Program-made: the position numbers and the translations under genes | In this document: piece after piece, positions 19,932-64,000 of the stretch | How positions within the stretch are numbered: the first letter of the stretch is position 1 | Layout: each line of letters starts with the position of its first letter | From: Streptomyces rapamycinicus NRRL 5491 | GTDB taxonomy: Bacteria > Actinomycetota > Actinomycetes > Streptomycetales > Streptomycetaceae | Assembly: GCF_024298965.1 (NCBI RefSeq) | Contig: NZ_CP085193.1 | Span: 3,596,001-3,660,000 of the forward strand | Length of the DNA: 64,000 bases | Direction of reading: 5' to 3' | The notes under the pieces: generated by a model | What the model was told of the DNA's origin: nothing | Databases searched by the model: none | Seen by the model: the letters and a program-made list of their open reading frames with translations, nothing else

Positions 19932-19943
19932 GAGGAAACCAAC

Positions 19944-20147
19944 GTGGCCACCCGTGACTGGCAAAAGTCCTCGTACAGCCAGGAGGGATCAGCCTGCCTC
20001 TACGTCGCCGTCCCCGCTCCCCACACCGTCAGACTCCGGGAGAGCGACGAGCCGGACGTCATCCTCACCACCACCCCCGCCACTCTCGGCACCTTCATAC
20101 ACGCGGCGAAGGCAGGCACGCTCGACCGCCTCATCGAGAGCCAGTAG
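19944..20147 (+). CDS. DUF397 protein
   Basis: The 67-residue protein has the family hallmarks WQKSSYSQEGSACLYVA, the strand VRLRESDEPD, and a C-terminal helix FIHAAKAG. DUF397 proteins are small partners of XRE/DUF5753 regulators in Streptomyces development and antibiotic control. The GTG start has AGAGGA seven bases upstream and lies 12 bp after the broken DUF5753 frame. The gene looks intact while its partner is not. Confidence 0.88.
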   Translation: MATRDWQKSSYSQEGSACLYVAVPAPHTVRLRESDEPDVILTTTPATLGTFIHAAKAGTLDRLIESQ

Positions 20148-47127: not shown

Positions 47128-48404
47128 ACGGGCCGCATGCCGCGGGCGCCGGCCGAGCGCGCCCACCCGCGCCGAGCGCGGTGGCCGGTGACGGTGAGAT
47201 GGCGCGGGCGGCCGTGTCACGGTCTGGCGATGGAGCGGCACGTCCGGCCGCGCCGAATACGGTGACCGGTGGCGACGAAGCAGCGCATGCGGTCACGTCA
47301 ACGTCTGGCGATGAGACGGCGCGTCCGGCCCCGCCGGGTGCGGTGTGCGGTGGCGGTGGGGCGGCACGGGGGGCCGTGTCGCGGGCGGGCGCCGGGCGGC
47401 CGGTCGCCGGCGGCGAGGCATCGCCGACCGCCGCGTCCTGGCCTCCCGCCGACGGCACCGTGGTCTGCGTCGGCGAGACGATGGCCGCGCTCGCCCCCGA
47501 ACCGCCCGCGTCCCTGGACACCGGCGAGAGCCTGCGGCTGTCCGTGGCGGGCGCGGAGTCCAACGTGGCGATGTACCTCGCTGACCTGGGCGTGTCCGCC
47601 GTCTGGCTATCGGCCCTCGGCGACGACCCGTTCGGCCGACGGGTGCGTACCGCCGTCGCCGCCGCGAACGTCGACGTCTCGGGCGTACGGTCCGACCCGC
47701 ACCGGCCGACCGGCCTGCTGGTGAAGGACCCCGGCCCCACGGGCACCCGCGTCCACTACTACCGGCGCGGGTCGGCGGCCTCGGCGCTGGGACCCGAGCT
47801 CCTGGACGATCCACGACTCGGGTCGGCGGCGCTCGTGCACCTCACGGGCGTGACACCCGCGCTCTCCCCGTCCTGCGGCGCCCTGGTGGAACGGGCGCTC
47901 GCGACCCCTCCGGCCGACCGGACCCACGCCATCAGCTTCGACGTCAACCACCGCCCCGCGCTGTGGCCGGACGGCACGGCCGCCACGGTCCTGCGCGCCC
48001 TGGCCGACCGCGCCGACATCGTCTTCGTCGGCCTCGACGAGGCACAGCACCTGTGGGGCGCGGACCTCGACGCGGGCGGCGTACGCGAGCTGCTGCCGCG
48101 TCCGCGTCTGCTCGTCGTCAAGGACGGCGGGCGGGCGGCGACCGCCTTCGGCGACGGGCCGGAGGTCACGGTGCCGGCCCCGCGCGCGGAGGTGGTGGAG
48201 CCGGTCGGCGCCGGGGACGCCTTCGCCGCCGGTTTCCTGGCCGGGCTGCTGCGCGGCGGGGCGCTGACCTCGGCGCTGCGACTCGGCCACATCACGGCCG
48301 GGTCCGCGCTCAGGGTGACCGGGGATCACGGCCCGCTGCCGGACGCCGCCACGGTCGAGCGGCTGCTCGGGCTCACCGAACGGGCGTGGGCGGCGCGCGC
48401 CTGA
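47124..48404 (+). CDS. PfkB-family sugar kinase (probable KDGal kinase) with repeat-rich N-terminal extension
   Basis: The kinase proper starts at about residue 112 (TVVCVGETMAALAP) and has GAESNVAMYLADLG for substrate, FDVNHRPALW, and the catalytic Asp in VGAGDAFAAGFLAGLL. It is of the 2-keto-3-deoxygluconate kinase type. Together with the aldolase it phosphorylates the dehydratase product. Before the kinase lies an Ala/Gly/Arg-rich extension of about 110 residues, made mainly of a 27-residue repeat (47178-47405), which typical members lack. ATG 47124 overlaps the lactonase stop; a start nearer the kinase (GTG 47461) is possible and would remove the extension. The stop lies inside a 12-bp minisatellite. 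Confidence 0.88.
   Translation: MNGPHAAGAGRARPPAPSAVAGDGEMARAAVSRSGDGAARPAAPNTVTGGDEAAHAVTSTSGDETARPAPPGAVCGGGGAARGAVSRAGAGRPVAGGEASPTAASWPPADGTVVCVGETMAALAPEPPASLDTGESLRLSVAGAESNVAMYLADLGVSAVWLSALGDDPFGRRVRTAVAAANVDVSGVRSDPHRPTGLLVKDPGPTGTRVHYYRRGSAASALGPELLDDPRLGSAALVHLTGVTPALSPSCGALVERALATPPADRTHAISFDVNHRPALWPDGTAATVLRALADRADIVFVGLDEAQHLWGADLDAGGVRELLPRPRLLVVKDGGRAATAFGDGPEVTVPAPRAEVVEPVGAGDAFAAGFLAGLLRGGALTSALRLGHITAGSALRVTGDHGPLPDAATVERLLGLTERAWAARA
47178..47405 (+). repeat. 81-bp tandem repeat coding a 27-residue unit
   Basis: Units begin at 47178 and 47259, with a partial third at 47340. They keep the frame and share blocks such as SGDGAARPAAP, SGDETARPAPP and VSRAGAGRPV. The unit-to-unit identity is moderate, so the duplication is not recent. 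Confidence 0.75.
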
Positions 48405-48484
48405 AGCCCTCGCTGGAGCCGTCCCTGGAACCCTCACTTGAGCCGTCGCGGAAGCCCTCACCGAAGCCGCCGCTGAAGCCGTCA
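48401..48484 (+). repeat. Seven 12-bp repeats starting on the kinase stop codon
   Basis: Units of CTGAAGCCCTCG type run from 48401 to 48484. The stop codon TGA (48402-48404) is inside the first unit. Later units keep the CTG/CCG...AGCC pattern. In another frame they would read as KPSLEPS-like repeats. The rest of the gap to 48670 shows no other feature apart from the likely promoter region of the next gene. Confidence 0.9.
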
Positions 48485-48670
48485 CGCGCCGCGTGCGGAG
48501 CCTCTCGCCGGACTACCTACGCCGCCCATTTGCCTCGTATGGCGTGAATGCGCCTTTCAGTCCCTAGGTCCCGCCAAGTGTGGCCCACAGCCCCTTCCGG
48601 AACTATCGTCCGCTTCATACCGTCAAGGGCTGCGCTACTCCGCTTCACGCCGACCGACTGGACGCCTTCC

Positions 48671-49105
48671 GTGCCCGATCCCTCCCACGCCGCCACCTGG
48701 CGCTTCGCCCTGCCGCACACGACGGCCGCCGTACCGCTGGCGCGTGCGCTGATCCGGAACACCCTGGCCGACATCGGGGCGCCCGTGGACGGCGACACGG
48801 CGGAGCTGCTGACGGCCGAGCTGGTGGCCAACGCGGTGCGGCACACGACCGGCGACGAGCCGATAGAGCTGGTGGTGGAGCTGGTGCCGACCGGGGGCTG
48901 GCAGGTCGAGGTGCACGACCAGGACCCGAATCCGCCCGGCGGGCTGGACTCGCTGGGGCGCCCCGAGGGGCCCAGGAGACCCGAAGGCCTCGCCGAGGGC
49001 GGACGCGGTCTGCTGCTGATCCGGACCCTCAGCGCCGACGCGGGCTACCGGCCGACCCCCTACGGCAAGGCCGTCTGGTTCGTCCTCCCGCCCACGGAGG
49101 ACTGA
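48671..49105 (+). CDS. HATPase_c anti-sigma-like ATP-binding protein
   Basis: The 144-residue protein has the GHKL ATPase motifs: N-box ELLTAELVANAVRHT (about 40), G1 EVHDQDPNPP and G2 GRGLLLIRTLS. Streptomyces carries many such short RsbW/SpoIIAB-like proteins, generally soluble partners of sigma factors or anti-sigma antagonists. GTG 48671 is chosen because homology starts there (MPDPSHAATWRFAL); the open frame extends back to ATG 48548 without support. No kinase substrate can be named. Confidence 0.85.
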   Translation: MPDPSHAATWRFALPHTTAAVPLARALIRNTLADIGAPVDGDTAELLTAELVANAVRHTTGDEPIELVVELVPTGGWQVEVHDQDPNPPGGLDSLGRPEGPRRPEGLAEGGRGLLLIRTLSADAGYRPTPYGKAVWFVLPPTED

Positions 49106-49116
49106 GCGCCGCCCAC

Positions 49117-49135
49117 CGGCGGCCGAGGGCCGCCG
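49117..49135. terminator. Hairpin between convergent genes
   Basis: CGGCGGCC-GAG-GGCCGCCG lies between the HATPase stop (49105) and the argF/arcB stop (49143) and could end both transcripts. Confidence 0.6.
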
Positions 49136-49142
49136 TCGAGCG

Positions 49143-50147
49143 CTACCGGGCGCCGAGCGTCGCGACCAGCACCGCCTTGATCGTGTGCATCCGGTTCTCC
49201 GCCTCGTCGAAGACGACGGAGTGCTCGGACTCGAAGACCTCGTCGGTGACCTCGAGCTCGGTCAGTCCGTGCCGCTCGTGGATCTCCCGGCCGACGTCGG
49301 TGCCCAGGTCGTGGAAGGCCGGCAGGCAGTGCAGGAACTTCACGGCGTCGTTGCCCGTGGCGCGCAGTACATCCATCGTCACCGCGTACGGCCCGAGCAG
49401 CGCTATCCGCTCGTCCCAGACCTCCTTGGGCTCGCCCATGGACACCCACACATCGGTGGCGACGAAGTCCGCGCCGCGCACGCCCTCCTCGACGTTCTCG
49501 GTGAGCGAGATCCGGGCGCCGGAGGCGGTGGCGAGCTGTCGCGCCAGCTCCACGATGGTGTTGTCGGGCCACAGCAGACTGGGCGCCACGATGCGGACGT
49601 CCATGCCCAGCAGGGCGCCGGTGACGAGGTAGGAGTTGCCCATGTTGTACCGGGCGTCACCGAGGTAGGCGTAGGCGACCTGATCCAGCGGCTTGTCGCT
49701 GTGCTCGGTCATGGTCAGCACATCGGCGAGCATCTGGGTGGGGTGCCACTCGTCGGTGAGGCCGTTGTAGACGGGCACCCCGGCGTGGGCGGCGAGCTCC
49801 TCGACGACGCCCTGGCCGTGGCCCCGGTACTCGATCGCGTCGTACATCCGGCCGAGCACCCGCGCCGTGTCCTTGACCGACTCCTTGTGACCGATCTGCG
49901 AGCCGACCGGATCGAGATAGGTCGTGGAGGCGCCCTGGTCGGCGGCCGCGACCTCGAAGGCGCAGCGGGTACGGGTGGAGGTCTTCTCGAAGACCAGGGC
50001 GATGTTCTTGCCCCGCAGCCGTCGCTCCTCGGTGCCCGCGCGCTTGGCCGCCTTCAGCTCGGCGGCGAGCTCGATCAGGCGGCGGAACTCGTCGGCGGTG
50101 AAGTCCAGCTCCTTGAGGAAGTGGCGGCCGGTGAGGTCAATCGCCAT
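49143..50147 (-). CDS. argF: Ornithine carbamoyltransferase
   Basis: The 334-residue enzyme interconverts ornithine plus carbamoyl phosphate and citrulline. The carbamoyl-phosphate motif [15 protein letters not shown], the ornithine motif DVWVSMGEP and the active-site HCLPAFHD are all present. The C-terminal [18 protein letters not shown] is standard. It is adjacent to arginine deiminase, so it may be the catabolic form (arcB) that yields carbamoyl phosphate from citrulline; there is no arcC or arcD in the window. An ArgR-like site is 78-105 bp upstream. Confidence 0.95.
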
Positions 50148-50224
50148 AAGGGTGGCTCCTAGGTCACGGCGAACACGTGGCGGATCAGCGGCTACGGCGG
50201 GGTGCCGCGGCCCGGAACCATGGA

Positions 50225-50252
50225 AGCATATACGACGCTCTGCATATATGCG
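50225..50252. promoter_or_regulatory. ArgR (ARG-box) candidate
   Basis: GCATATACGACGCTCTGCATATATGC has two overlapping AT-rich half-palindromes (GCATATA and TGCATATATGC) in a GC-rich setting, the form of paired ARG boxes. It lies between the argF start and the arcA stop, so it probably controls argF. Confidence 0.55.
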
Positions 50253-50262
50253 GAGACGGGTA

Positions 50263-50385
50263 GGTGAATCCCGACCCTACGGCCCGAAGGTGAACCCTGG
50301 CCCCACGACTTGAGGGTGAATGCTGGCCCTGCGGCTCAAGGCGAAACTTCGGCCCTACGACTCGAGGCGAAACTTCGGCGGCCCT
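50263..50385 (-). repeat. 26-bp repeats starting on the arcA stop codon
   Basis: Read on the minus strand, the unit is GAGCCGTAGGGCC followed by GAAGTTTCGCCTC. The TAG in the first unit is the arcA stop codon (50384-50386). Four or five diverged units follow down to 50263. They occupy the whole gap up to the ARG box. Confidence 0.9.
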
Positions 50386-51613
50386 ACGGCTCCACCGGGT
50401 CCCGCTCGACCGGGCAGCTCATGCACCGCGGCCCGCCCCGGCCCCTGCCCAGCTCGCTGCCCGGGATGTCGATGACCTCGATCCCGCACTTGCGCAGATA
50501 GGTGTTGGTCGTCGCGTTCCGCTCGTAGGCGACCACCACGCCCGGCTCGACCGCGAGCACGTTGCAGCCGTCGTCCCACTGCTCGCGCTCGGCGGCGTGG
50601 ACATCCTGGGTCGCGGTGAGCACGCGGATGGAGTCCAGGCCGAGGGCCGCGGCTATCGCGCGGTGCATATGCTCCGGCGGATGGTCGGTGACCTTGAGTT
50701 CCTGGCTGCCCGCGCCCGGCTCGATGGTGTACGAGCGGAGCATCCCCAGCCCCGCGTACTGGGTGAAGGTGTCCCCGTCCACCATGGTCATCACGGTGTC
50801 CAGGTGCATGAAGGCCCGCCCCTTGGGCATGTCGAGCGCCACGATCGTCCGGGCCGAACCGGCCTCGAAGAGCCGGTGGGCGATCATCTCCACCGCCTGC
50901 GGGGTGGTCCGCTCGCTCATCCCGATCAGCACCGCGCCCTTGCCGAGCACCAGCACATCGCCGCCCTCGATGGTGGAGGGGTACGCGGCCTGGCCCTCCG
51001 ACCAGACGTGGAAGTCCTCCTTCGCGAAGAGCGGGTGATGGCGGTAGACGGCCTCGTAGTGCACCGTCTCGTGCCAGCGGGCGGGCCAGCGCATCGCGTT
51101 GATCGACACCCCGTCGTACACCCACGCCGAGGCGTCCCGGGTGAAGAGGTGGTTCGGCAGCGGATTGACCAGGAAGTCATCGGGTTCCATGGCGTGGAAG
51201 CGGACGGAGATCGGCTCCGGGTACCGCTGCAGATACTCCCGCTTGGTCATGCCGCCGATCAGCGCCTCGGTCAGCTCCGGAGCGGTCAGCTCGTCGAAGG
51301 CGGCACGCAGATGATCGGTGGCCAGCGGCCCGTACTCCTTCTCGTCGAAGACCCGGTCCAGCACCAGCGCCCGCGCGTCCGGCAGGGTCAGGCTCTCGGT
51401 GAGCAGGTCCCCGAAGAGATGCACCTCGACCCCGCGGTCCCGCAGCACATCGGCGAAGCCGTCGTGCTCCTGGCGGGCACGGCGCACCCACAGGACGTCG
51501 TCGAAGAGCAGGGCGTCCTTGTTGGTGGGTGTGAGCCGCTTGAGCTCCAGGTCGGGGCGGTGCAGTATGACGCGGCGCAGCCGCCCGGCCTCGGAGTCGA
51601 CATGGAATCCCAT
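50384..51613 (-). CDS. arcA: Arginine deiminase
   Basis: The 409-residue enzyme hydrolyses arginine to citrulline and ammonia. The start [20 protein letters not shown] and [44 protein letters not shown] and the C-terminal active-site Cys in [14 protein letters not shown] are all normal. ATG 51611-51613 is chosen because the family begins here; the upstream open frame is repeat DNA. With the neighbouring carbamoyltransferase it makes a two-gene arginine-degradation unit. Confidence 0.96.
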
Positions 51614-51639
51614 GACCCCATCTTCGCCGCTCACGGCCC

Positions 51640-52090
51640 ATTGTGAACGCTCCGCGCCACGGAACTCTCGATCTCCCGCGCGAGCCGCCACCGGCGGAGT
51701 GGTGGGGAAACGCGCGCGCCGCGCGGGAACCGCCACCGTGGTCCGCCACGGGCGGTGAGCGGGTGCCGGTCGGTCCCCGTTGGCCCCGCCCCGGGGCGGG
51801 AAGCTGCCAGGGGTCCGGTGAGCCGGGCGGCGAGGATGCGCGCGCCGCGCGGGAGGCGCACGCGGCCCGCCGCGGGCGGGAAGCAGGCGTCTTCCGGTCG
51901 CCCACCATGGTTCCCCCGCGAGAGCGGGAGACCGCCGACAGCCCGGTGCGCCGGGCGGCGGGAACACGCGCGCCGGACGGGAAGCGCCGTCGCGGCCCGC
52001 CGGCCGGCCCCGGCAGAGGGCGGGACCCGCGTCGGCCCCGGCAGAGGGCGGGGTCCGGGTCCGCGTCGGCGGGGGCCGGTCTACGTCGGG
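51640..52090. repeat. Gene-free stretch with three ~128-bp diverged tandem repeats
   Basis: A core of the type ACGCGCGCGCCGCGCGGGA occurs at about 51709, 51837 and 51964, spaced about 128 bp, within similar flanking sequence. A 31-bp direct repeat (GGCCCCGGCAGAGGGCGGG core) is at about 52004-52065. No coding sequence is supported. This is the arcA promoter side and the 3' side of the tail-anchored protein gene. Confidence 0.7.
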
Positions 52091-52093
52091 CGG

Positions 52094-52900
52094 TCAGCCG
52101 GCCGCGAGCACCACGATCAGCACCAGCGCCACCGCGATGAACCCCAGCAGGGCGGAGACCCACAGCTGGCCGGGCTTCAGATCGATCCGGCTGCCGTCGT
52201 CGGCGCCCCCGCGCCGCCAACGCCGCCGCGCCGTGCGCCGGGCGGCGCGGGCCGCCGCCTCCCGGTGCTCCCGGGATTCCTCGGCCACGCCACCGAACAG
52301 CGCCTTCCAGCCCTTCTCGCCGAACCCGGTGCTCTGCCGGGTGCCGACGATCCGGCGCACCACCTCGCGGCCCGCGCCGTCCCCGGCCGTCCACAGGCCG
52401 GGCAGGACGCAGGCCATCAGCTCCGGCACGGCGCCGCGCCGCGCGTACGGGCGGACCAGCCCCTCGTACAGCATCAGCGCGTTGCGCACCCGCAGCCTGC
52501 GGTCGGGGTCCGGGGCCGGGCCGCCCGCGCCGCCCGGGGCGCGGTGCGGCGGGTCGAGATAGAGCTGGGCGAGCAGCACCTTCTCGCAGACCGCGTCCGC
52601 CAGCTCCGGGCCGCGCTCGGGCGCGCGGCGCACCAGCTCGACCACGACGCGGGTGGCCCGCTCGGCGGGCAGCCCCTCGTCGAGCGCGCTCAGCAGCAGG
52701 CCGTCGTCGGCCTCCCGCAGCGCCGCGGACAGGGCGTCCCCGCCGTGGCGCAGCGCCTCGCGCAGCGCCCGCGCCCCGGTGACCGAGATCCGGCGCGCCC
52801 CCGCGCTCGCCGGCCTCTCGTGGGCGTGGTCGTGGGTGGCCTCGTTTGTGGTCTCGTTCGTGGTCTCCGTGCCCGTCGGGTCATCTGTCTCTTTCACCAT
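52094..52900 (-). CDS. Tail-anchored protein, partner of the P-loop protein
   Basis: The 268-residue protein has an acidic/Thr-rich N-terminus (about 1-30), a helical body (about 35-190; LREALRHGGDALSAALREADDG, VVVELVRRAPERGPEL, LMLYEGLVRPYARRG) and an Arg-rich patch. It ends in a single membrane helix (SALLGFIAVALVLIVVLAAG) at the very C-terminus. The tail-anchor would leave the body in the cytoplasm. GAGGAG is 7 bases before the ATG, and the gene starts 11 bp after the stop of the 702-residue gene. I do not recognise the family. Confidence 0.75.
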   Translation of the reverse strand: MVKETDDPTGTETTNETTNEATHDHAHERPASAGARRISVTGARALREALRHGGDALSAALREADDGLLLSALDEGLPAERATRVVVELVRRAPERGPELADAVCEKVLLAQLYLDPPHRAPGGAGGPAPDPDRRLRVRNALMLYEGLVRPYARRGAVPELMACVLPGLWTAGDGAGREVVRRIVGTRQSTGFGEKGWKALFGGVAEESREHREAAARAARRTARRRWRRGGADDGSRIDLKPGQLWVSALLGFIAVALVLIVVLAAG

Positions 52901-52911
52901 CGACGTTCTCC

Positions 52912-55020: not shown

Positions 55021-55314
55021 CGCCCGCCGTCCTTCATGCCGTGGCCCCCGTCTCGCGATGTGGTGGTGACGGGGTGCCGGTCAATGCCGGAAGCGGGCGG
55101 CGGGGCTCGTCCCCCTGCCCACCCCGCCGCCCTTCTCCGGTGCGGGGCGCTCGGGCCTTGTCCGGCAGACCGTCACCGGACAGCGGCCGGGCCGTGCGCA
55201 CCCCCGTCGCTCACGGTCCCGCGCCCTGTGCCAACTCCAGGGTCGCCGGGGGACGGCGGGACGGCTGTAGCCGTTTACACAGTCGCGTCAAAACGCGGGG
55301 GAGCGCGCGCCCGC
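55021..55314. promoter_or_regulatory. Intergenic promoter region of the P-loop operon
   Basis: The 294 bp carry no gene. On the minus strand TTGACG (55286-55291) and TACAGC (55264-55269) are 16 bp apart, a plausible sigma-70 type promoter, about 240 bp upstream of the 55020 start. The remainder shows no clear feature. Confidence 0.5.
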
Positions 55315-55434
55315 GCTCAATCGCGGTTGCTCGCTCAATCGCGGACGCGAGCTCAATCGCGGGGACGCGCTCAATCGCGGAGACGCGCTCAATCGCGGAG
55401 ACGGCTCAGTCGCGGTTGCTCGCTCAATCGCGGG
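55315..55434 (-). repeat. Seven 18-bp repeats starting on the Crp stop codon
   Basis: On the minus strand the unit CGCGATTGAGCGAGCAAC holds the Crp stop (TGA, 55424-55426) in its first copy, then repeats about seven times with small changes (18, 17, 18, 18, 18 and 18 bp). GATTGAGC or GACTGAGC is kept in every unit. Confidence 0.92.
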
Positions 55435-56143
55435 GGCGCGCCGGGATCTGCTCCCCCGTCGCACGGCCCTCGGCCAGCAGCCGCAGCAGTCCGATGTCCA
55501 TCACCTCGAACCGGCGCGAGGCGGTCCGGACCACGCCCTGGCCGCGCAGCAGCCGCAGCGCCTTGGCGACGGCCTCCCGGGTCGAGCCCACGGCGGCCGC
55601 GATGTCGTGCTGGGGCATCTGGAGATCGATGGTGATGGTGCCGTCGGCGCCGGAGAGGCCGGTGCGCTCGGCGAGTTCGACGAGCCGGGCCGCCAGCCGC
55701 TGCAGCACCTTCTCGGAGGCGAGTGACCGCCGCTCCCCGTCGGAGCTGCGCAGCCGGGAGCTGAACTGACGCATGATCAGTACGGTCGCGACGGGACGCG
55801 CGGCCAGATACGCCCGGAACCGGTCGCCGGAGACCGCCACCGCCTCCATCCGGCCGAGCGCGGTGACGGTGGCGCTGCGCGAGCCGTGGTCCACCGCGGC
55901 CTGGTCGCCCACGACCTCGCCCGCCCCGCGCAGCGCCAGGATCAGCCGCACCCCGCGCTCGGTCTCCACCGAGACGGTGGCCCAGCCGAAGGTGATCGCC
56001 ACGACGAAGGTCGTACGGTCGTGCTCGCGCAGCACGACCTCGCCGGGGGCGTAGGCGCGGGGGGTGCCGAGGGCGAGCAGCGCGCGGCGGTCCTCGGCGG
56101 GGAGCGCGTGCAGGAAGGGCCGTCCGTCCTCGAAGAGGCTCAT
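55424..56143 (-). CDS. Crp/Fnr-family regulator
   Basis: The 239-residue protein has a cNMP-type N-domain (about 10-120; YAPGEVVLREHDRTTFVVAIT and LRGAGEVVGDQAAV) and a C-terminal winged HTH (QHDIAAAVGSTREAVAKALRLLR). Cyclic-nucleotide binding residues are only partly conserved. The 3' end extends into a minisatellite. Target genes unknown; Streptomyces has several such regulators. Confidence 0.9.
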   Translation of the reverse strand: MSLFEDGRPFLHALPAEDRRALLALGTPRAYAPGEVVLREHDRTTFVVAITFGWATVSVETERGVRLILALRGAGEVVGDQAAVDHGSRSATVTALGRMEAVAVSGDRFRAYLAARPVATVLIMRQFSSRLRSSDGERRSLASEKVLQRLAARLVELAERTGLSGADGTITIDLQMPQHDIAAAVGSTREAVAKALRLLRGQGVVRTASRRFEVMDIGLLRLLAEGRATGEQIPARPRD

Positions 56144-56229
56144 CCGCCCTCCCCGCTCAGCTCGTCGTCGTCATTGCCTGCGGAGAATCCAGGGACCGCT
56201 CAGCACGCTAGGCAGGTGGCACGGGCACG

Positions 56230-56625
56230 TCAATGGTGCCGTATCGGGTCCGTGCCGGATCCACGGCTCTCACCGGGGTCGGCACCCATCTCCCCGTTCT
56301 CGGTACGAACGCGTGTGCGCAAGGCCGCGCCCGCGACGGCCGCGAATGCGGCGGTCACGGCCGTGCAGACCCACCCGGCGCGCAGCGCGTCAAGACCCGG
56401 CCGTGCGACGCCACCGGTGATCACGACCAGCGCCGCGACGCCCAGGGCCGAGCCGCCCTGCCGGGACATCATCAGCACCCCCGAGCCGAGGGAGAGCTGA
56501 CGGGCCGGAAGCAGTCCGGCGGCCGCGAACATCACCGGCTGGTAGAGCCCCGCCCCGAGCCCGGTGAGCACCAGGCCGGGCATGAACCCCACGGCGTAGT
56601 GCGCACCGTCGCCGCCCGCGAGGCC
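56230..56625 (-). pseudogene. C-terminal fragment of an MFS drug-efflux transporter
   Basis: About 130 residues remain: HYAVGFMPGLVLTGLGAGLY, then LSLGSGVLMMSRQGGSALGVA and a final helix. This is the last third of a DHA2-type efflux pump (about 470-500 residues). The frame begins abruptly next to the pnkp stop at 56628, so the 5' portion was lost at this junction. No start codon is evident. Confidence 0.75.
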
Positions 56626-56627
56626 GG

Positions 56628-59246
56628 CTACAACCGTGGGTCCACCGGCTCCGACTCCAGTGCGAGCACCGCGAAGACCGCCTCGTGGACGCGCCACAGG
56701 GGCTCGCCCTCCGCAAGCCGGTCCAGGGCCTCCAGGCCGAGCGCGTACTCGCGCAGGGCGAGTGAGCGCTTGTGGCCCAGGTGGCGCTCCCGCAGCCGGG
56801 CGAGGTTCTCCGGGCGGGTGTACTCCGGGCCGTAGATGATGCGCAGATACTCGCGGCCCCGGCACTTCACGCCCGGCTGGACCAGCCGGCCGTCGCCCTT
56901 GCGGACGAAGCCCTGGAGCGGCTTGACCACCATGCCCTCGCCGCCCGCGGCCGTCAGGTCCAGCCACCACCGGACCCCTTCGGCGACCGACGCCTCGTCC
57001 TCGGTGTCGACGACCAGCCGACGGGTGGGGGTCAGCAGCCGGGCGCCGTCGGCGGCCGGCTTCTCCGCCTCGATCATCCGGTCGATCAGGGCGAGCTGCT
57101 GATCGTGCGGAAGCGCGGTGGCGAGGTTGCGGCCCTGGACGGCCAGGATCTGGAACGGCGCCATCCGGATGCCGTCCAACCCGTCGACCGGCCAGCAGTA
57201 GCGCCGATAGGCGTCGGTGAACGCGGCCGCGTCCGACGCCCGGTCACGCTGCTTGGCGAGCAGCGCGGATACCTCGACACCGCGCGCCTCCGCGCCCTCC
57301 AACGCCGCGAGGACGCCGGGGAAGACGGCGCGCGAGGCGGCGCCCACCGCCGCGTACTGGTGGCGCAGCAGCCCCTCCGCCTTGAGCGACCACGGCATCA
57401 ACTCGGCGTCCAGCAGCAGCCAGTCGGTGTCCAGCTCCTGCCACAGCCCGGCGCGGTCGAGACAGTCGCCCAGCCCGCGCAGCACGGTCTCCGTGAGCTG
57501 GGCGTCGTCGAAGAACGGCCGTCCGGTACGGGTGTGGATCGCGCCGGAGACGCCGTCCGGCGTGCCGAAGCGCTCCCGCGCGATGTCCGCGTCACGGCAC
57601 ACCAGCGCCACCGCACGCGAGCCCATGTGCTTCTCCTCACAGATCACCTGGCGCACCCCGTCCGCGCGGTAGGCGGCGAACGCCTCCGCGGGGTGCTCGA
57701 GGAAGCCGCCGTCGGCGGCTCCGCCGCCGGTGCCCTCCCTGGAGGTGGCGGTCGGCGCCATGGTGGGCGGGAGATAGCCGAGCAGCCGGGGGTCGACCGC
57801 GAAACGGCTCATGACCTCCAGCGCCGCCGCCGCGTTCTCCTCCTTGACCGCGATCCGGCCCATGTGGCGGGTCTCGACGATCCGGCGGCCCCGCACATCG
57901 CCCAGGTCGAGCGGGCGCCCGTCGGCGCCTCCGGGGGCCTCGGTGGTGAGCGGTTTGACCGGTTCGTACCAGACCCGCTCGGCCGGAACGTCCACCAGTT
58001 CGCGCTCCGGCCAGCGCAGCCCGGTCATCCGGCCGCCGAAGACACATCCGGTGTCCAGGCAGATGGTGTTGTTGAGCCAGGAGGCGCGAGGGGTGGGGGT
58101 GTGGCCGTAGACGACGGCGGCGCGGCCGCGGTAGTCCTCGGCCCACGGATAGCGAACGGGCAGGCCGAACTCATCGGTCTCCCCCGTCGTCTCCCCGTAC
58201 AGCGCGTGCGAGCGGACCCGGCCGGAGGTGCGGCCGTGGTACTTCTCGGGCAGCCCGGCGTGGCACACCACCAGCGCCCCGCCGTCCAGTACGTAGTGGC
58301 TGACCAGCGACTCGATGAAGTCCCGCACCCGGTCGACGAAGGCCGGGTCCGCACGGTGCTCCCGGTCCAGCTGCTCCACGGTCTCGGCGAGGCCATGGGT
58401 GACCCGGACCTTGCGGCCCTTGAGGTAGCGGGCGAGCTTGTTCTCGTGGTTGCCGGGCACGCACAGGGCCGCGCCGGAGGCGACCATGCCCATCACCAGG
58501 CGCAGCACTCCGGGGCTGTCGGGGCCGCGGTCGACGAGGTCGCCGACGAAGACCGCCGTACGGCCCTCGGGGTGGGCGGCGTCGACCGGGCGGCCGAGGT
58601 CGTCGCGGCGCAGGGCGTAGCCCAGCTTGCCCAGCAGCGTCTCCAGCTCGGAGCGGCAGCCGTGGATGTCGCCGATGATGTCGAACGGGCCGGTGAGATG
58701 GCGCAGATCGTTGTAGCGGCGCTCGGTCGCGACCTCCACGGCCTCGACCTCCTCGGCGCCGCGCAGGACATGCACCTTGCGGAACCCCTCGCGCTCCAGG
58801 GACTTCAGCGAGCGGCGCAGCTCACGGCGCTGGCGGGGGATGACATGGTCGGGCATTCCGGCGCGGTCGGGACGCCGGGCGTTGCGCCGGGCGCACTCGC
58901 CCTCGGGGACGTCGAGGACGATCGCGACGGGCAGGACGTCGTGCTCGCGCGCGAGATTGATCAGGCTGCGGCGGGACTCGCTGCGGACGTTGGTGGCGTC
59001 GACGACGGTCAGCCGTCCGGCGGCCAGCCGCTTGCCCGCGATGTAGTGGAGCACGTCGAAGGCGTCGGGGGTGGCGCTCTGGTCGTTCTCGTCGTCGGCG
59101 ACCAGGCCGCGGCAGACGTCGGAGGAGACGATCTGGGTGGGCGGGAAGTGGCGCCGGGCGAAGGTGGACTTGCCGGAGCCGGTGGTGCCGACGAGCACCA
59201 CGAGGGACAGGTCGGGCACGCCGATGGTGCGCTTCTCCTCGGTCAT
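56628..59246 (-). CDS. pnkp: Polynucleotide kinase-phosphatase (RNA repair)
   Basis: The 872-residue protein has the three modules of bacterial Pnkp: an N-terminal kinase with P-loop GTTGSGKST (20-28), a metallophosphatase (DIIGDIHGCRSELETLL, FVGDLVDRGPD and GNHENKL), and a C-terminal ligase-like adenylyltransferase with the nucleotidyl Lys in EEKHMGSRAV. It trims and heals broken RNA ends. ATG 59244-59246 overlaps the hen1 stop (ATGA), so both are coupled. The order hen1-pnkp is the usual one. Confidence 0.95.
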   Translation of the reverse strand: MTEEKRTIGVPDLSLVVLVGTTGSGKSTFARRHFPPTQIVSSDVCRGLVADDENDQSATPDAFDVLHYIAGKRLAAGRLTVVDATNVRSESRRSLINLAREHDVLPVAIVLDVPEGECARRNARRPDRAGMPDHVIPRQRRELRRSLKSLEREGFRKVHVLRGAEEVEAVEVATERRYNDLRHLTGPFDIIGDIHGCRSELETLLGKLGYALRRDDLGRPVDAAHPEGRTAVFVGDLVDRGPDSPGVLRLVMGMVASGAALCVPGNHENKLARYLKGRKVRVTHGLAETVEQLDREHRADPAFVDRVRDFIESLVSHYVLDGGALVVCHAGLPEKYHGRTSGRVRSHALYGETTGETDEFGLPVRYPWAEDYRGRAAVVYGHTPTPRASWLNNTICLDTGCVFGGRMTGLRWPERELVDVPAERVWYEPVKPLTTEAPGGADGRPLDLGDVRGRRIVETRHMGRIAVKEENAAAALEVMSRFAVDPRLLGYLPPTMAPTATSREGTGGGAADGGFLEHPAEAFAAYRADGVRQVICEEKHMGSRAVALVCRDADIARERFGTPDGVSGAIHTRTGRPFFDDAQLTETVLRGLGDCLDRAGLWQELDTDWLLLDAELMPWSLKAEGLLRHQYAAVGAASRAVFPGVLAALEGAEARGVEVSALLAKQRDRASDAAAFTDAYRRYCWPVDGLDGIRMAPFQILAVQGRNLATALPHDQQLALIDRMIEAEKPAADGARLLTPTRRLVVDTEDEASVAEGVRWWLDLTAAGGEGMVVKPLQGFVRKGDGRLVQPGVKCRGREYLRIIYGPEYTRPENLARLRERHLGHKRSLALREYALGLEALDRLAEGEPLWRVHEAVFAVLALESEPVDPRL

Positions 59247-60805
59247 GCTGCTGCCTCCTTCGTCGTGGCCGTCGTGGCCGTCGTGGCCGTCGTGGCCGTA
59301 TCGGTCGTGTGGTCACCGCCGATACGGAAGAGCGCCAGCTGGGTGGGCGGGCCGACCTCGGGGTCCTCGGGGCCGACGGGGTGGAACTCCACCGCGTAGC
59401 CGTGCCGTTCGGCGACCTCGCCCGCCCAGGTCCGGAACTCCTCGCGCGTCCACTCGAAGCGGTGGTCGCCGTGGCGCATCCGCCCGGCGGGCAGCGTCTC
59501 CCAGCGCACGTTGTACTCCACGTTGGGCGTGGTCACCACGACGGCCTTGGGCCGTGCGGCGCCGAACACCACTTGCTCCAGGGCGGGCAGCCGGGGCGGA
59601 TCCACATGCTCGATCACCTCGCTGAGCACCGCCGCGTCATATCCGGCGAGCCGGGAGTCGGTGTAGGTGAGCGCGCCCTGGGTCAGCTTCAGCCGCGCCG
59701 ACTGCCGCTCGGCCGCGCCCGTGTCGAAGCCGGGGCGGTCCAGCCGCAGCCTCCGCGCCGCCTCGTTGAGCGCGCGCATCGACACATCGACGCCCACGAT
59801 CTCGGTGAACCGCGCCTCCTTCAGCAACGCGCCCAGCAACTGGCCCTGGCCGCAGCCGAGATCGAGCACCCGGGCCGCGCCGACCCCGCGCAGGGCGTGG
59901 AGTATCGCCTCCCGCCGCCGGACCGCCAGTGGCACCGGCCGCTCCTCGGAACCCTCCTCGCTCTCGTCCTCCTCCATCAGCCCGGCCGCCGCCGGTTCGC
60001 CGACGGCGTTGTCGATCTCCTCCACGGCGGTGTCGTCGGCCTCGGCGAGCCGCGCCAGCTCCAGCCGCTCCAGCGCGCTGCGCGTCAGCGACCAGCGCCG
60101 GGCCAGATAGCGGTTGGTGATCAGCCGCTGCTCGGGGTGGCTCTCCAGCCAGCCCTCACCGGAGCGGAGCAGCTTGTCGACCTCGTCCGGGGCGACCCAG
60201 TAGTGCTTGGCGTCATCGAGCACGGGCAGCAGCACATACAGCTGGCGCAGGGCGTCGGCCAGCCGCGGCTCGCCCTCCAGCACCAGCCGTACGTACCGCG
60301 AGTCGCCCCATGCCGGGAACTCCTCGTCCAGCACCACCGGCTCGGCCGTCACCGCCCAGCCCAGCGGCGCGAAGAGCCGCTCGACCAGGGCCGCACCGCC
60401 GCGCGCTGGCAGCGCGGGCACCTCGATCCGCAGCGGCAGCGCCCGCTCCGGCAGCTCGGGCCGGGCCTTGCACTGGCCCCGCAGAGCGCTGGAGAAGACC
60501 GCGCTCAGCGCGACCGCCAGCAGGGAGGAGGCGGCGTACGGGCGGTCGTTGACGTACTGGGCGAGCGCGGAGTCGGGGGCGCCGCCCCGGCCCTTGCCGC
60601 GGCCCCGTCGCACCAGCGCCACGGGGTCCACTTCCAACAGCAGCGCCGCGGTGCAGCGTTCGGCGGTCGCCTCGGGGTAGAGGACATGCGCGGTGCCGTA
60701 GGAGGTCGAGAACCGCTGCGCCTTGTCGGGATGCTTGTGCAGCAGAAACCCGAGGTCGGTCGCGGGGCGCTCGGCGGTGCCGGTGGTGGTTATCGTCAAG
60801 AACAC
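59243..60805 (-). CDS. hen1: 3'-terminal RNA 2'-O-methyltransferase Hen1
   Basis: The 520-residue protein has an N-terminal regulatory region (from MFLTITTTG...) and a C-terminal methyltransferase with SAM motif VLDLGCGQGQLLGALL and the Mn2+ ligands Glu-Val-Ile-Glu-His (EVIEHVDPP) and His-Gly-Asp-His (MRHGDHRFEW). Hen1 adds a methyl group to the 2'-OH of the damaged RNA 3' end before ligation by Pnkp. GTG 60805 is chosen because relatives start FLTI; the frame opens back to 60838. Confidence 0.95.
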   Translation of the reverse strand: MFLTITTTGTAERPATDLGFLLHKHPDKAQRFSTSYGTAHVLYPEATAERCTAALLLEVDPVALVRRGRGKGRGGAPDSALAQYVNDRPYAASSLLAVALSAVFSSALRGQCKARPELPERALPLRIEVPALPARGGAALVERLFAPLGWAVTAEPVVLDEEFPAWGDSRYVRLVLEGEPRLADALRQLYVLLPVLDDAKHYWVAPDEVDKLLRSGEGWLESHPEQRLITNRYLARRWSLTRSALERLELARLAEADDTAVEEIDNAVGEPAAAGLMEEDESEEGSEERPVPLAVRRREAILHALRGVGAARVLDLGCGQGQLLGALLKEARFTEIVGVDVSMRALNEAARRLRLDRPGFDTGAAERQSARLKLTQGALTYTDSRLAGYDAAVLSEVIEHVDPPRLPALEQVVFGAARPKAVVVTTPNVEYNVRWETLPAGRMRHGDHRFEWTREEFRTWAGEVAERHGYAVEFHPVGPEDPEVGPPTQLALFRIGGDHTTDTATTATTATTATTKEAAA

Positions 60806-60849
60806 CCGTCCGAGTATCGCCTGGCGGTCCTCCCTCACCTAATGGTTTC

Positions 60850-61110
60850 TCACCGGGGAAGCCGCTCGGCACCTACGGGGTGCCCGGCGGATCTGTCCCC
60901 TCCCCACCCCTTCCCGGTACCAGGGGCCCCGCCCCTGGCTCCGAGTCGGGGGCGGAGCCCCACCACGCGGCGGAGCCCCATCACGCGCCGCGCCGCGCAT
61001 CGATGCCGCGGGGAGGGGCGGAGCCCCAGTTGCGGGGTCGGGGGCGGAGCCCCAGTTGCGGGAAGGGGCGGGTAGGGGAAAGCAGCCCGCCGCAGGCGTC
61101 CCGCCCCGCC
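60850..61110. repeat. Cluster of GGGGCGGAGCCCC-type intergenic repeats
   Basis: The gap between hen1 and mmuM is almost filled by self-complementary GGGGCGGAGCCCC cores at about 60951, 60972, 61015 and 61049, plus GTTGCGGGAAGGGGCGGG tracts. The same family is at 1458-1876. They form strong hairpins and may act as two-way terminators. No gene is visible. Confidence 0.75.
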
Positions 61111-61119
61111 GGACACCTC

Positions 61120-62061
61120 CTAAGCGCCCCTCACCACCGCCGCCAGCTCCGCGATCCGCTCCGCGCCCACCCGGCAGCAGCCGCCGATGAGCCGCGCCCC
61201 CGCGTCCCGCCATGCCTTCACCCGCCCCGGGTCGAACGTCGCCCGGCCGCGCCAGCTCCGTGCCGTGGCATCCCACTCCTCTCCGCTGTTCGGATACACC
61301 ACCACCGGCTTGCCGGTGATGTCGGCCGCGATCTCCACGGCCCGGTCCGCGTCACCCGGCGCACAGCAGTTGACGCCGACCGCGATCACCTGGTCGACCC
61401 CCGCGGCCAGGGCGAACGCGTCCCTCAGCGGCTGTCCGGCCCGGGTGGTCTCTCCCGCGATGCTGTAGGAGAGCCATACCGGCACCCCGCATCCCTCGAC
61501 GGCGCTCAGCATCGCCGCGGCCTCGTCCGCGTCCGGCACCGTCTCCAGCGCCAGCGCGTCGGGACCGGCCGCGGCCAGGGCCTCGATCCTCGGCCGGTGG
61601 AACCGCGCCAACTCGGCCACGCTCAGCCCGTACCGCCCGCGGTACTCGCTGCCGTCCGCCAGCATCGCCCCGTAAGGGCCGACGGAGGCGGCGACCCACA
61701 CCGGCTCCGCGCCCCGCTCATCCGCGGCCGTCCGTCCGGCGGCCGCCCGCTCGGCCCCCGCGCGCGCCAGCTCGACACTGCGCCGCAGCAGCGCCGTGGC
61801 CTCCTCGCGGCCCACGCCCCGGTGGGCGAACCCCTCGTAGGTGGCCTGATAGCTGCCCGTGATGAGCACCCGTGCGCCCGCCCGCGCGTAGGCGGTGTGG
61901 GCCGCCTCGAGCTGCCCCGGGTCGTCGGCCAGCAGCCGGGCCGACCACAGCTCGTCGGAGAGATCGCAGCCCTGTGCCTCCAGTTGGTTGGACAGACCGC
62001 CGTCGAGGACGAGCGGCCCGCGCTCCAGCGCGGCGGCCAGGGAGGTGGGGGTTACGGACAT
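61120..62061 (-). CDS. mmuM: Homocysteine S-methyltransferase
   Basis: The 313-residue enzyme methylates homocysteine, usually with S-methylmethionine or SAM as donor, making methionine. The N-terminal LDGGLSNQLEAQG is diagnostic, and the Zn ligands appear as Cys in GVNCCAP and the pair in IGGCCRVG. The length and order are typical of MmuM. AGGAG is 8 bases before the ATG at 62059-62061, 23 bp downstream of the LLM gene. The longer upstream frame is not needed. Confidence 0.93.
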   Translation of the reverse strand: MSVTPTSLAAALERGPLVLDGGLSNQLEAQGCDLSDELWSARLLADDPGQLEAAHTAYARAGARVLITGSYQATYEGFAHRGVGREEATALLRRSVELARAGAERAAAGRTAADERGAEPVWVAASVGPYGAMLADGSEYRGRYGLSVAELARFHRPRIEALAAAGPDALALETVPDADEAAAMLSAVEGCGVPVWLSYSIAGETTRAGQPLRDAFALAAGVDQVIAVGVNCCAPGDADRAVEIAADITGKPVVVYPNSGEEWDATARSWRGRATFDPGRVKAWRDAGARLIGGCCRVGAERIAELAAVVRGA

Positions 62062-62084
62062 CACGGGTGCTCCTGGTGGTGCGC

Positions 62085-63008
62085 TCAGCCCAGCTGGGCC
62101 TGGACCTGCGAGGAAATCAGCTCCAGATGGTCGAGGTCGCTCAGGTCCAGCATCTGGAGGTAGAGCCGGGAGGCGCCCGCCTCCGCATAGCGGCCGATCT
62201 TCTCGACGACCTCGGCCGGGGAGCCCGCCAGGCCGTTCTCCTTCAGCTCCTCGACCTTCCGGCCGATCGCCGCGGCCCGCCGGGCGACCTCGGCGTCGTC
62301 CTTGCCCACGCACGCCACCAGCGCGGTGGAGTACACCAGGTCGTCGCCCTCGCGGCCGACGGCCTCGGCCGCCTCCCGCACCCGGCCGAACTGGCGCTCG
62401 CTGTCCTCGGGCGAGGCGAACGGCATATTGAACTCGTCCGCGTACCGCGCGGCCAGCCGCGGGGTGCGGGTGGCCCCCTGGCCGCCGATCAGCACCGGCA
62501 CCTTGCTCTGCGCGGGCTTGGGCAGCCCCGGGGAGTCCACCAGCTGGTAGTGGGCACCGTCATGGCCGAAGGTCTCGCCGACCGGGGTCTGCCACAGCCC
62601 GGTGACGATGGCCAGCTGCTCCTCCAGCCGGGCGAACTTCTCCTTGGGGAAGGGGATCCCATAGGCCCGGTGCTCCTCCTCGAACCAGCCCGCGCCCAGG
62701 CCAAGCTCGACTCGTCCACCCGACATCTGGTCGACCTGCGCGACCTGGATCGCCAGCACACCGGGCAGCCGGAAGGTGGCGGCGGTCATCAGGGTGCCCA
62801 GCCGGATCCGCCGGGTCTCGCGGGCCAGCCCGGCCAGGGTGATCCAGGCGTCGGTGGGGCCGGGGAGGCCGTCCACGTCTCCCATGTGGAGGTAGTGGTC
62901 GGACCGGAAGAAGGCGTCGAATCCGAGGTCCTCGGTGGCCTTGGCGACGGTGAGCAGCGTGTCGTAGGTCGCCCCCTGCTGGGGCTCGGTGAAGATGCGA
63001 AGATCCAT
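62085..63008 (-). CDS. LLM-class F420-dependent oxidoreductase
   Basis: The 307-residue barrel protein belongs to the luciferase-like monooxygenase family. AKATEDLGFDAFFRSDHYLH, LGTLMTAATFRLPGVLA, GRVELGLGAGWFEEEH and PVLIGGQG are standard LLM motifs. Actinobacterial members usually use F420. ATG 63006-63008 (MDLRIF) is chosen; an in-frame ATG lies 9 bases earlier. Substrate unknown. It is the middle gene of DUF6099-LLM-mmuM. Confidence 0.9.
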   Translation of the reverse strand: MDLRIFTEPQQGATYDTLLTVAKATEDLGFDAFFRSDHYLHMGDVDGLPGPTDAWITLAGLARETRRIRLGTLMTAATFRLPGVLAIQVAQVDQMSGGRVELGLGAGWFEEEHRAYGIPFPKEKFARLEEQLAIVTGLWQTPVGETFGHDGAHYQLVDSPGLPKPAQSKVPVLIGGQGATRTPRLAARYADEFNMPFASPEDSERQFGRVREAAEAVGREGDDLVYSTALVACVGKDDAEVARRAAAIGRKVEELKENGLAGSPAEVVEKIGRYAEAGASRLYLQMLDLSDLDHLELISSQVQAQLG

Positions 63009-63026
63009 GGCACCCATCCTGCCTCG

Positions 63027-63512
63027 TCACGCGGCACCACCCCACTCCCCACCCCACTCGCGGAAGGTGAGGTGCCTGAGCATGCCGTGCACCCGGTCCC
63101 GGGCCTCGTCCGCCGCGTCGATCGCCTCCACGCACTGCCAGTACAGCGCCTCCTCCTCGGTATTGGAGGCGACCCCGACCAGCGCGAAGCCCGCCTCCGC
63201 CAGCAGCTCTCCCAGCGCCAGCAGCACCTCCCTCGGATCGCGCACCTCCGAGAGCTGGGCGGCCCGTAAACCGCCGCCGCGCAATGTGGGGTGGTGCAGC
63301 GCCGGGTGGAACAGGGCGCCGCGCGCTCGCCCGCCCGCCTCGCACAGACCGCGCGCCTCCGCTCGCGCGGCCGCCGGGCCACTCACCACGAAATATCCGC
63401 CGACCGCTTCGGCCAGCGCTTGAACCTGCCAGGCTTCGGCCACGATGTCGTGCACGCTCCCGGCCTTCGCCAGGGCATGCCGGGTGACACCGATCAGCCG
63501 CATCGCGTCCAT
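63027..63512 (-). CDS. DUF6099-type protein
   Basis: The 161-residue protein has the Streptomyces family pattern MDAMRLIGVTRHALAKAG, AEAWQVQALAEAVGGYFVVSG and a C-terminal acidic helix. It is all-helical by eye with no transmembrane segment. ATG 63510-63512 has GGGG/GAGGGG upstream. It leads the LLM-mmuM genes with a gap of 18 bp. Role unknown. Confidence 0.75.
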   Translation of the reverse strand: MDAMRLIGVTRHALAKAGSVHDIVAEAWQVQALAEAVGGYFVVSGPAAARAEARGLCEAGGRARGALFHPALHHPTLRGGGLRAAQLSEVRDPREVLLALGELLAEAGFALVGVASNTEEEALYWQCVEAIDAADEARDRVHGMLRHLTFREWGGEWGGAA

Positions 63513-63697
63513 TCCCCGCACCCCTCTCAACGGACTTCCGAGCCCGTCACTCCTCCACTACCCAGAGTGATGACTAACAGGCCGAAAAGCTAGGGGAATT
63601 CAGGAATCTGTTGACAACAGTTGCGGTGTGGATAACTTCTTCACTACTTAGAGTGACGAATCAGGGGGCCGGAGCCCCGCGAGTCACCGGAGATCAC
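63513..63697. promoter_or_regulatory. Promoter region with repeated palindromes and a DnaA-box-like site
   Basis: CACTACCCAGAGTGA (63556-63570) and TCACTACTTAGAGTGA (63641-63656) are two copies of one site, about 85 bp apart. Between them are CTGTTG-A-CAACAG (63608-63620) and TGTGGATAA (63627-63635), a match to the DnaA box TTATCCACA. The sequence is unusually AT-rich for this genome. No gene is seen. Confidence 0.55.
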
Positions 63698-63828
63698 GGT
63701 TCACCGCCACAGCCCCCGTTCACTGCCATAGCCGCCTGTTCACCGTGAGATCACCCATTCACCGCCAAAGCCCCCGTTCGCGGTCGGCGCGCCCCTCATT
63801 CGCGGTCAGCGCGCCCCGTTCACCGGAA
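63698..63828 (-). repeat. Repeats starting on the stop codon of the MazG-like gene
   Basis: On the minus strand GGGGCGCGCTGACCGCGAAT holds the stop (TGA, 63806-63808). A second copy follows with CGA in place of TGA, then three or four copies of a related GGCGGTGAACGGGGGCTNTG unit to about 63698. Confidence 0.8.
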
Positions 63829-64000
63829 ACCGCACCTCGTTCCGGTCGATCTTCGCGGAGAGCGCCGCGAGCGCGTCGATCCCCAGCACCTCGCAGAACT
63901 GGAGCAGATACGCCAGCACATCCGCGACCTCGTCCTCGACCCGGCCTGCCCTCCCCTCCTCCTCCATCACCCGTGCCGACTGCTCGGGCGTCAGCCACTG
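63806..64000 (-). CDS. MazG-type nucleotide pyrophosphohydrolase, 5' part missing
   Basis: The last 64 residues are seen, entering from the right edge. ARVMEEEGRAGRVEDEVADV is the second part of the MazG/RS21-C6 EExxE-12x-ExxD pattern, and FCEVLGIDALAALSAKIDRN the final helix. The likely role is hydrolysis of non-canonical NTPs. The stop codon falls in a tandem repeat. Confidence 0.8.
   Translation of the reverse strand, partial: QWLTPEQSARVMEEEGRAGRVEDEVADVLAYLLQFCEVLGIDALAALSAKIDRNEVRFPVNGAR

What the first reader, a model, noticed from the sequence alone, without database searches (positions are those of the whole stretch)
48401..63828. Four unrelated genes end in tandem repeats whose first unit contains the stop codon
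The PfkB kinase (12-bp x7, 48401-48484), arcA (26-bp x4-5, 50263-50385), crp (18-bp x7, 55315-55434) and the MazG-like gene (22-bp, 63698-63828) each run into a minisatellite with the stop codon inside unit one. The unit sequences are unrelated, so this is not one mobile repeat. The repeat seems to be created again and again from the bases around a stop codon. Possible causes: slippage set off by termination of translation or by a 3'-end hairpin, or selection for a longer 3' UTR or readthrough buffer. I know of no named class of this kind.
Basis: seen in the sequence. Interest (0 to 1): 0.82.

Follow-up and report, generated by a model that had tools for sequence, protein, structure and literature searches.

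The report
Stop-codon minisatellites in Streptomyces gene spacers
In this Streptomyces group the short, unprotected DNA between the end of one gene and the control region of the next keeps growing by tandem duplication, and because that space is so narrow the duplicated piece often includes the stop codon; this is real, but mostly explained without any special stop-codon machinery.

Summary
Four unrelated genes run into tandem arrays with the stop codon in the first unit; the units are not clearly alike and not dispersed. In 2.0 Mb sampled from the same 12.5-Mb genome, 92 of 1579 gene 3' ends carry such an array, against 16 of 1579 5' ends; 96 of 353 arrays have an edge within 20 bp of a stop (21.8 after random shifts). 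Relatives in the Streptomyces violaceusniger group show young, lineage-specific growth: in the crp spacer, 35-37 bp long in 9 of 16 genomes, this genome has seven 18-bp units, S. antioxidans two 28-bp units, S. iranensis a 124-bp inverted-repeat element.

Much of the enrichment follows from geometry: the shortest spacers are about 10-35 bp, so a 12-26-bp duplication often takes in the stop without changing the protein. Within convergent gaps placement is as expected (23 seen, 23.1 expected), and the stop's phase in the unit is uniform. A 1.3-fold excess remains for arrays with periods not divisible by three, a filter chosen after seeing data, and array-edge density falls with distance from stops. 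Readthrough buffering is not supported; a weak stop-proximal hot spot is not excluded.

The parts
47460..48404 (+). PfkB-family kinase gene (start approximate), stop TGA 48402-48404
   Evidence: Pfam PF00294 6e-50; sequence
48401..48485 (+). 12/24-bp array, 7 copies, stop in unit 1
50384..51613 (-). arginine deiminase gene (arcA-like), stop TAG 50384-50386
   Evidence: Pfam PF02274 1e-117; gene call
50263..50385 (-). 26-bp array, 4-5 copies, stop in unit 1
   Evidence: similar arrays in several relatives
50220..50250 (-). conserved block with paired TATATGC sequences (ARG-box-like, name recalled) upstream of the carbamoyltransferase gene; bounds the free spacer
   Evidence: a block matching one of the search patterns found in 16 of 16 genomes examined, this one included (sequences)
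55424..56143 (-). Crp/Fnr-like regulator gene, stop TGA 55424-55426
   Evidence: Pfam PF00027, PF13545
55312..55433 (-). 18-bp array, 7 copies, stop in unit 1
55265..55285 (.). conserved TGTGTAAACGGCTACA block bounding the crp spacer
   Evidence: GTGTAAACGGCTACA found within 400 bp in 16 of 18 genomes, this one included
63806..63970 (-). MazG-like gene, 3' part, stop TGA 63806-63808
63699..63817 (-). composite array: 22-bp unit over the stop, 19/39-bp unit beyond
52007..52093 (-). fifth array (28-bp) abutting the stop of the gene at 52094-52900

Best explanation
These are young, local minisatellites that arise by tandem duplication in the narrow unconstrained spacer between a stop codon and the next conserved element (operator or promoter of the next gene, or a convergent neighbour). 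Duplications that break a coding frame or an operator are presumably lost; one that starts a few codons before the stop leaves the protein unchanged, because the first copy still ends the gene. Since the shortest spacers are only about 10-35 bp and units 12-26 bp, many tolerated duplications must touch or include the stop. Arrays then gain and lose copies within lineages. Shown: position, spacer lengths, lineage-specific presence, placement statistics. Inferred: replication slippage or unequal exchange as the copying step, near-neutrality of the arrays, and the loss of duplications elsewhere.
For: Distances from stop to the next conserved block (genomes include this one): arcA 24, 24, 25, 26 bp in 4 of 16 (133 here); crp 35-37 bp in 9 of the 16 (of 18) where the block was found (143 here); pfkB 25 and 33 bp in 2 of 5 (122 here); mazG 9, 13, 13 bp in 3 of the 8 (of 10) with the block found (148 here). 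Chance that a unit placed at random in these shortest spacers covers the stop: 1.0, 0.45, 0.29-0.39, 1.0. crp: a single copy of the stop sequence in S. violaceusniger, S. sabulosicollis and S. endocoffeicus, seven copies of its core here. The same spacer holds a separate 28-bp duplication in S. antioxidans and a 124-bp inverted-repeat insert in S. iranensis, with the downstream block present. At the mazG stop S. rugosispiralis has a 17/34-bp unit instead of 22 bp, and at the stop of the gene at 52094 four genomes have periods 28, 27, 22 and 18. Convergent gaps: 23 arrays overlap a stop, 23.1 expected. Co-directional gaps, with 60 bp at the 5' side closed: 29 vs 27.7. Phase of the stop within the first unit uniform (KS p=0.84 on the 47 of 53 arrays whose overlap is at most one period). 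Array DNA fraction falls from convergent (0.089) to co-directional (0.067) to divergent gaps (0.026), as expected if promoters exclude arrays.
Against: For arrays with periods not divisible by three, more overlap a stop than the within-gap null predicts: 34 vs 26.2 of 61 (p=0.009, own genome), 47 vs 35.4 of 91 (p=0.0015, pooled); in convergent gaps alone 17 vs 13.0 (p=0.062). A null spreading arrays over all gaps up to 400 bp gives a larger excess: 17 vs 8.8 in convergent and 17 vs 8.4 in co-directional gaps. Density of array edges in convergent gaps falls with distance from the stop, from 2.07 per kb at -12..0 bp and 1.65 at 0..12 to 0.53 at 50..100 and 0.31 at 100..200. The co-directional result depends on the assumed closed 5' zone: 0 or 30 bp closed gives an excess, 60 none, 90 or more a deficit; with 60 bp closed, edges within 12 bp are still in excess at score >=60 (51 vs 42.5, p=0.019) though not at >=70 (42 vs 36.7, p=0.091). 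Some array-poor relatives have longer spacers: arcA 39-68 bp in six genomes, where the same formula gives 0.62-0.35 rather than 1.0. Gene calls are my own and unvalidated; the conserved blocks were picked by eye.
Confidence: 0.68

Rival explanations
1. The stop codon region is a mutational hot spot: transcription or translation ending there (stalled polymerase, R-loops, hairpins) promotes slippage, so duplications start at stops more often than in other free DNA.
For: 1.3-fold residual excess for periods not divisible by three (47 vs 35.4, p=0.0015 pooled); about two-fold against an all-gap null; edge density falling with distance from stops; arrays with different periods at the same stops in different species.
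Against: No excess for all arrays in convergent gaps (23 vs 23.1); uniform phase of the stop in the unit; stop arrays fold no better than other gap arrays (z -0.63 vs -0.72, P=0.53); no clear excess in G013 (5 vs 3.8) or G005 (1 vs 0.9) alone. The filter on period was chosen after seeing the data.
Confidence: 0.2
2. The arrays are selected for a function at mRNA 3' ends: serial stop codons, terminator hairpins or longer 3' untranslated regions.
For: Seven crp copies carry TGA; arrays are densest in convergent gaps; stop arrays fold slightly better than 60 array-free stop regions (z -0.63 vs -0.19, P=0.07).
Against: Period divisible by 3 in only 16 of 53 stop arrays, so repeated stops are usually out of frame; the stop triplet is hardly more conserved than the rest of the unit (0.862 vs 0.835, 53 unit pairs of at least 65% identity); pfkB has TGA in that place in 2 of 7 copies; 16 of 18 genomes have no array at the crp stop at score >=45.
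Confidence: 0.08
3. Assembly artefacts.
For: Draft assemblies can miscount repeats; many of the relatives are drafts.
Against: Similar arcA arrays occur in several separately assembled species; copies within arrays are diverged, unlike assembly duplicates.
Confidence: 0.02
4. A dispersed mobile repeat family that targets stop codons, like mycobacterial MIRU (recalled).
For: Stops inside units; S. iranensis has a 124-bp inverted-repeat element starting directly after the crp stop.
Against: The array sequences occur once in the genome apart from weak partial matches, and are not clearly alike.
Confidence: 0.02

Closest known systems
Bacterial minisatellites / VNTR loci in intergenic DNA
   Same: Tandem units of 9-100 bp, lineage-specific, copy number different between relatives.
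   Different: Here their placement at gene ends is quantified, and many different units share the same position relative to stops. Array density (coding and non-coding, score >=70) is 90-177 per Mb in three Streptomyces against 3 arrays in 250 kb of E. coli K-12.
Mycobacterial interspersed repetitive units (MIRU-VNTR)
   Same: As recalled, MIRU lie between genes and can include stop and start codons. In M. tuberculosis-complex species the rnc-fpg spacer is 279-358 bp with direct repeats, against 1-54 bp in other mycobacteria (passages of PMC2734929).
   Different: MIRU are one dispersed sequence family (recalled); the arrays here each occur at one place. In the rnc-fpg case the repeats start 40 bp after the stop.
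Prokaryotic satellites surveyed in PMC6749651
   Same: Unique, unrelated, scattered satellites, many judged non-coding, are described there for some species (passages).
   Different: Its main text has no 'stop codon'; it lists S. coelicolor satellites, but the passages seen do not discuss gene ends.

Membership tests
Bacterial minisatellite | head-to-tail copies of a unit of about 9-100 bp beyond chance | tested here: met
VNTR locus | copy number differs between strains of one species | not testable with these tools
   one genome per species is held; copy number differs between species
MIRU-type interspersed repeat | one sequence family at many places in the genome | tested here: not met
MIRU-type interspersed repeat | unit overlaps stop or start codons of neighbouring genes (feature recalled) | tested here: met
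   stops at four loci; starts rarely genome-wide (7 of 170 gap arrays)
Functional 3' element (terminator or serial stop array) | units conserve a hairpin or in-frame stops | tested here: not met
   transcript 3' ends not testable here

The most novel reading that the evidence does not exclude
In Streptomyces the DNA just around stop codons is a real mutational hot spot for short tandem duplication, driven by events at transcript ends, so that gene 3' ends keep generating new minisatellites de novo and spacers grow at a position set by the stop codon.
Probability: 0.2. Interest if true: 0.72.

Novelty: new variant of a known kind. Interest (0 to 1): 0.45.

Why it matters
It shows how bacterial spacers can lengthen: in this clade by repeated local duplication confined between a stop codon and the next conserved block, giving species-specific arrays at about 6% of the gene 3' ends sampled (92 of 1579). 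It also warns that clustering of repeats at a feature must be tested against the narrowness of unconstrained DNA. If the small residual excess proves real, it would link duplication mutagenesis to transcript ends.

Tried and rejected
Selection for serial in-frame stops, hairpin-driven slippage and a dispersed mobile family were tested and not supported (8, 45-48). A simple random-shift null gives a 4- to 8-fold enrichment but ignores that coding and promoter DNA excludes arrays, so it was not used for the conclusion. Searches were first passes on fewer data, superseded. (alignment) used a wrong stretch of L128 and told nothing. So these are different units or boundaries at one stop, and independent origin is an inference; I lowered the best explanation from 0.70 to 0.68 and raised the hot-spot rival from 0.18 to 0.20 after adding the edge-density result. 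The pooled test includes 20 loci syntenic with the window, so it is not fully independent; L126 (3.9 kb) was left out of it. One search used the window and 17 of the 21 loci (L138-L140 and L142 left out as more distant). The split by period was introduced after one search showed that 82 of 170 gap arrays have periods divisible by 3, which suggests missed coding DNA; those show fewer stop overlaps than expected (16 vs 23.9 of 55). Paper searches; four of them found no paper, and searches listed only part of the papers found (15 of 25, 12 of 17, 12 of 34, 10 of 14). No listed title is about stop-codon minisatellites in Streptomyces. Two papers were opened, passages only.
Full report
What is there. 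The window is G000:C1:3596001-3660000 of a 12.47-Mb single-contig genome; its closest named relatives found are of the Streptomyces violaceusniger group (group name recalled; S. rugosispiralis, S. endocoffeicus, S. iranensis, S. antioxidans and others, 97-99% identity in the Crp-like protein). The four arrays are real and each has the stop codon in its first unit. At the MazG-like gene there are two adjoining arrays, the stop-spanning one with only about 2.2-2.5 copies. A fifth array abuts the stop of the gene at 52094-52900. The four arrays are not clearly alike (11 of 12 comparisons at the level of shuffles, the twelfth P=0.01). The arcA and crp queries match only themselves in the genome; the pfkB and mazG ones have only weak partial matches elsewhere, best E 0.0039 and 0.117.

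How common. I sampled 100 stretches of 20 kb from the same genome (65 at 155-kb steps, 35 filling in between 3.08 and 8.52 Mb; nothing beyond 10.145 Mb and nothing from the window) and called genes with a codon-usage gene finder written here, which is not a validated annotation. Of 1579 genes, 92 have an array (score >=70, period >=8) whose near edge lies before or at most 12 bp past the stop and whose far edge is more than 20 bp past it; 16 have one so placed at the 5' end. One array between convergent genes can count for both. In two other Streptomyces the figures are 10 and 3 of 179 (G013), and 3 and 0 of 182 (G005). Arrays of this score, coding ones included, number 176.5, 175 and 90 per Mb in the three genomes; 250 kb of E. 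coli K-12 hold 3. In gap DNA the count falls from 172 to 0.4 on shuffling.

Why at stops. That null ignores that coding DNA and promoters exclude arrays. When each array is placed at random within its own gap, with the unit allowed to reach into the gene as far as the first copy keeps the stop, convergent gaps show 23 stop-overlapping arrays against 23.1 expected. In co-directional gaps the answer depends on how much of the 5' side is closed: expected 12.0, 20.5, 27.7, 35.6 and 46.9 for 0, 30, 60, 90 and 120 bp closed, against 29 seen; the observed distance of arrays from the 5' end there has a lower quartile of 54 and a median of 98 bp. The position of the stop within the first unit is uniform (KS p=0.84 on 47 of 53 arrays). 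Divergent gaps, which have no stop, have the lowest array content (0.026 of bases, against 0.067 and 0.089).

A residual, against this reading. Density of array edges in convergent gaps falls with distance from the stop, 2.07, 1.65, 1.26, 0.63, 0.53 and 0.31 per kb for -12..0, 0..12, 12..25, 25..50, 50..100 and 100..200 bp. About half of gap arrays (82 of 170) have periods divisible by three but only 16 of 53 stop-overlapping ones do, so some 'intergenic' arrays are probably missed coding repeats. Leaving those out, 34 of 61 overlap a stop against 26.2 expected (p=0.009), and 47 of 91 against 35.4 pooled with the other genomes and the relatives (p=0.0015), while arrays with periods divisible by three go the other way, 16 against 23.9 of 55. 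G013 and G005 alone show no clear excess (5 vs 3.8 and 1 vs 0.9). A null spread over all gaps up to 400 bp gives about a two-fold excess (17 vs 8.8 convergent, 17 vs 8.4 co-directional). The filter was chosen after seeing the data, so I treat this as a lead.

Growth seen in relatives. At crp, S. violaceusniger, S. sabulosicollis and S. endocoffeicus have one copy of CCGCGAYTGAGCGCGGGCGCGC around the stop; this genome has seven copies of its core. G055, 93% identical in the Crp-like protein, has that sequence once after a short 12-bp repeat that lies inside the coding end and reaches the stop (score 53). The distance from the stop to the conserved block GTGTAAACGGCTACA is 35-37 bp in 9 of the 16 genomes where it was found (of 18), 42-63 bp in four, 64 bp in S. 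antioxidans (a 28-bp duplication with other boundaries that shares the stop core, P=0.01), 143 bp here and 163 bp in S. iranensis, where a 124-bp element with 21-bp inverted ends begins directly after the stop. At arcA the distance to the next conserved block is 24-26 bp in 4 of 16 genomes, 39-68 in six, and 83-133 in six, this genome included; the arrays there look like one family. At pfkB it is 25 and 33 bp in two of five and 120-147 in three, of which S. antioxidans has a different unit. At the MazG-like gene it is 9-13 bp in three of eight and 127-257 in five, and in two more genomes no block was found after the stop; S. rugosispiralis has a 17/34-bp unit with the stop inside, different from the 22-bp unit here but with some similarity over the longer stretch. 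Over 15 genes of the block, not counting the MazG-like one, 30 of 185 readable 3' ends have an array at the stop at a lower threshold (score >=45), at 10 of 15 genes; two convergent genes share one array and so count it twice in two genomes. At the gene at 52094 four genomes have periods 28, 27, 22 and 18. The conserved blocks were chosen by eye after reading the sequences.

Mechanism. In the shortest spacers a unit of the observed length placed at random covers the stop with probability 1.0 (arcA), 0.45 (crp), 0.29-0.39 (pfkB) and 1.0 (mazG); with the longer array-poor arcA spacers of 39-68 bp it is 0.62-0.35, and with crp spacers of 42-63 bp 0.38-0.25. A duplication that includes the last codons and the stop leaves the protein unchanged; one reaching into the next operator presumably does not survive. 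This accounts for stop-in-unit-one arrays at different genes with different units. Slippage or unequal exchange as the copying step is inferred. Against function: later copies keep the stop triplet about as well as the rest of the unit (0.862 vs 0.835, 53 unit pairs of at least 65% identity), periods are usually out of frame, and stop arrays fold no better than other gap arrays, though slightly better than array-free stops (P=0.07).

Compared with what is known. These are bacterial minisatellites. In M. tuberculosis-complex species the rnc-fpg spacer is 279-358 bp with direct repeats against 1-54 bp in other mycobacteria (PMC2734929, passages), the closest published parallel I saw. MIRU also include stop codons (recalled) but are one family, which these are not. 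The survey of prokaryotic satellites has no 'stop codon' in its main text (PMC6749651, passages). Nine searches (some listings cut) listed no title on stop-codon minisatellites in Streptomyces; most subscription papers are outside that library.

Verdict.

Noticed in passing
window 55265-55285; L062-L078; L122-L142: A conserved palindrome-like block TGTGTAAACGGCTACA lies downstream of the Crp-like gene, upstream of a 702-aa gene without Pfam match; found in 16 of 18 genomes. In some more distant relatives the stop codon TAA of the Crp-like gene lies inside it. It may be an operator of this regulator.
   Followed up: partly
L124:10721-10844; L008:19260-19337; L009:10667-10687: Small element with 21-bp inverted ends (GAGNCTGTGTCNTATCCCCGG) directly after the crp-like stop in S. 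iranensis; matching ends also in the window's own genome.
   Followed up: partly
window 56628-60838: PNKP-ligase-type RNA repair gene next to a Hen1-like methyltransferase gene, near the Crp-like regulator.
   Followed up: no
L054:17382-17718 and 19844-19996: Arrays of period 122 and 61 whose units hold a palindromic CCCGC...GCGGGG part, looking like CRISPR repeats and spacers.
   Followed up: no
window 47167-47391: An 81-bp period array of 2.8 diverged copies upstream of the PfkB-type kinase gene.
   Followed up: no
L141 (S. antioxidans), 3' end of the PfkB-type gene: A stretch like the end of the coding sequence with its TGA seems to recur just downstream of the stop, as expected of a duplication that took in the stop (read by eye).
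   Followed up: no
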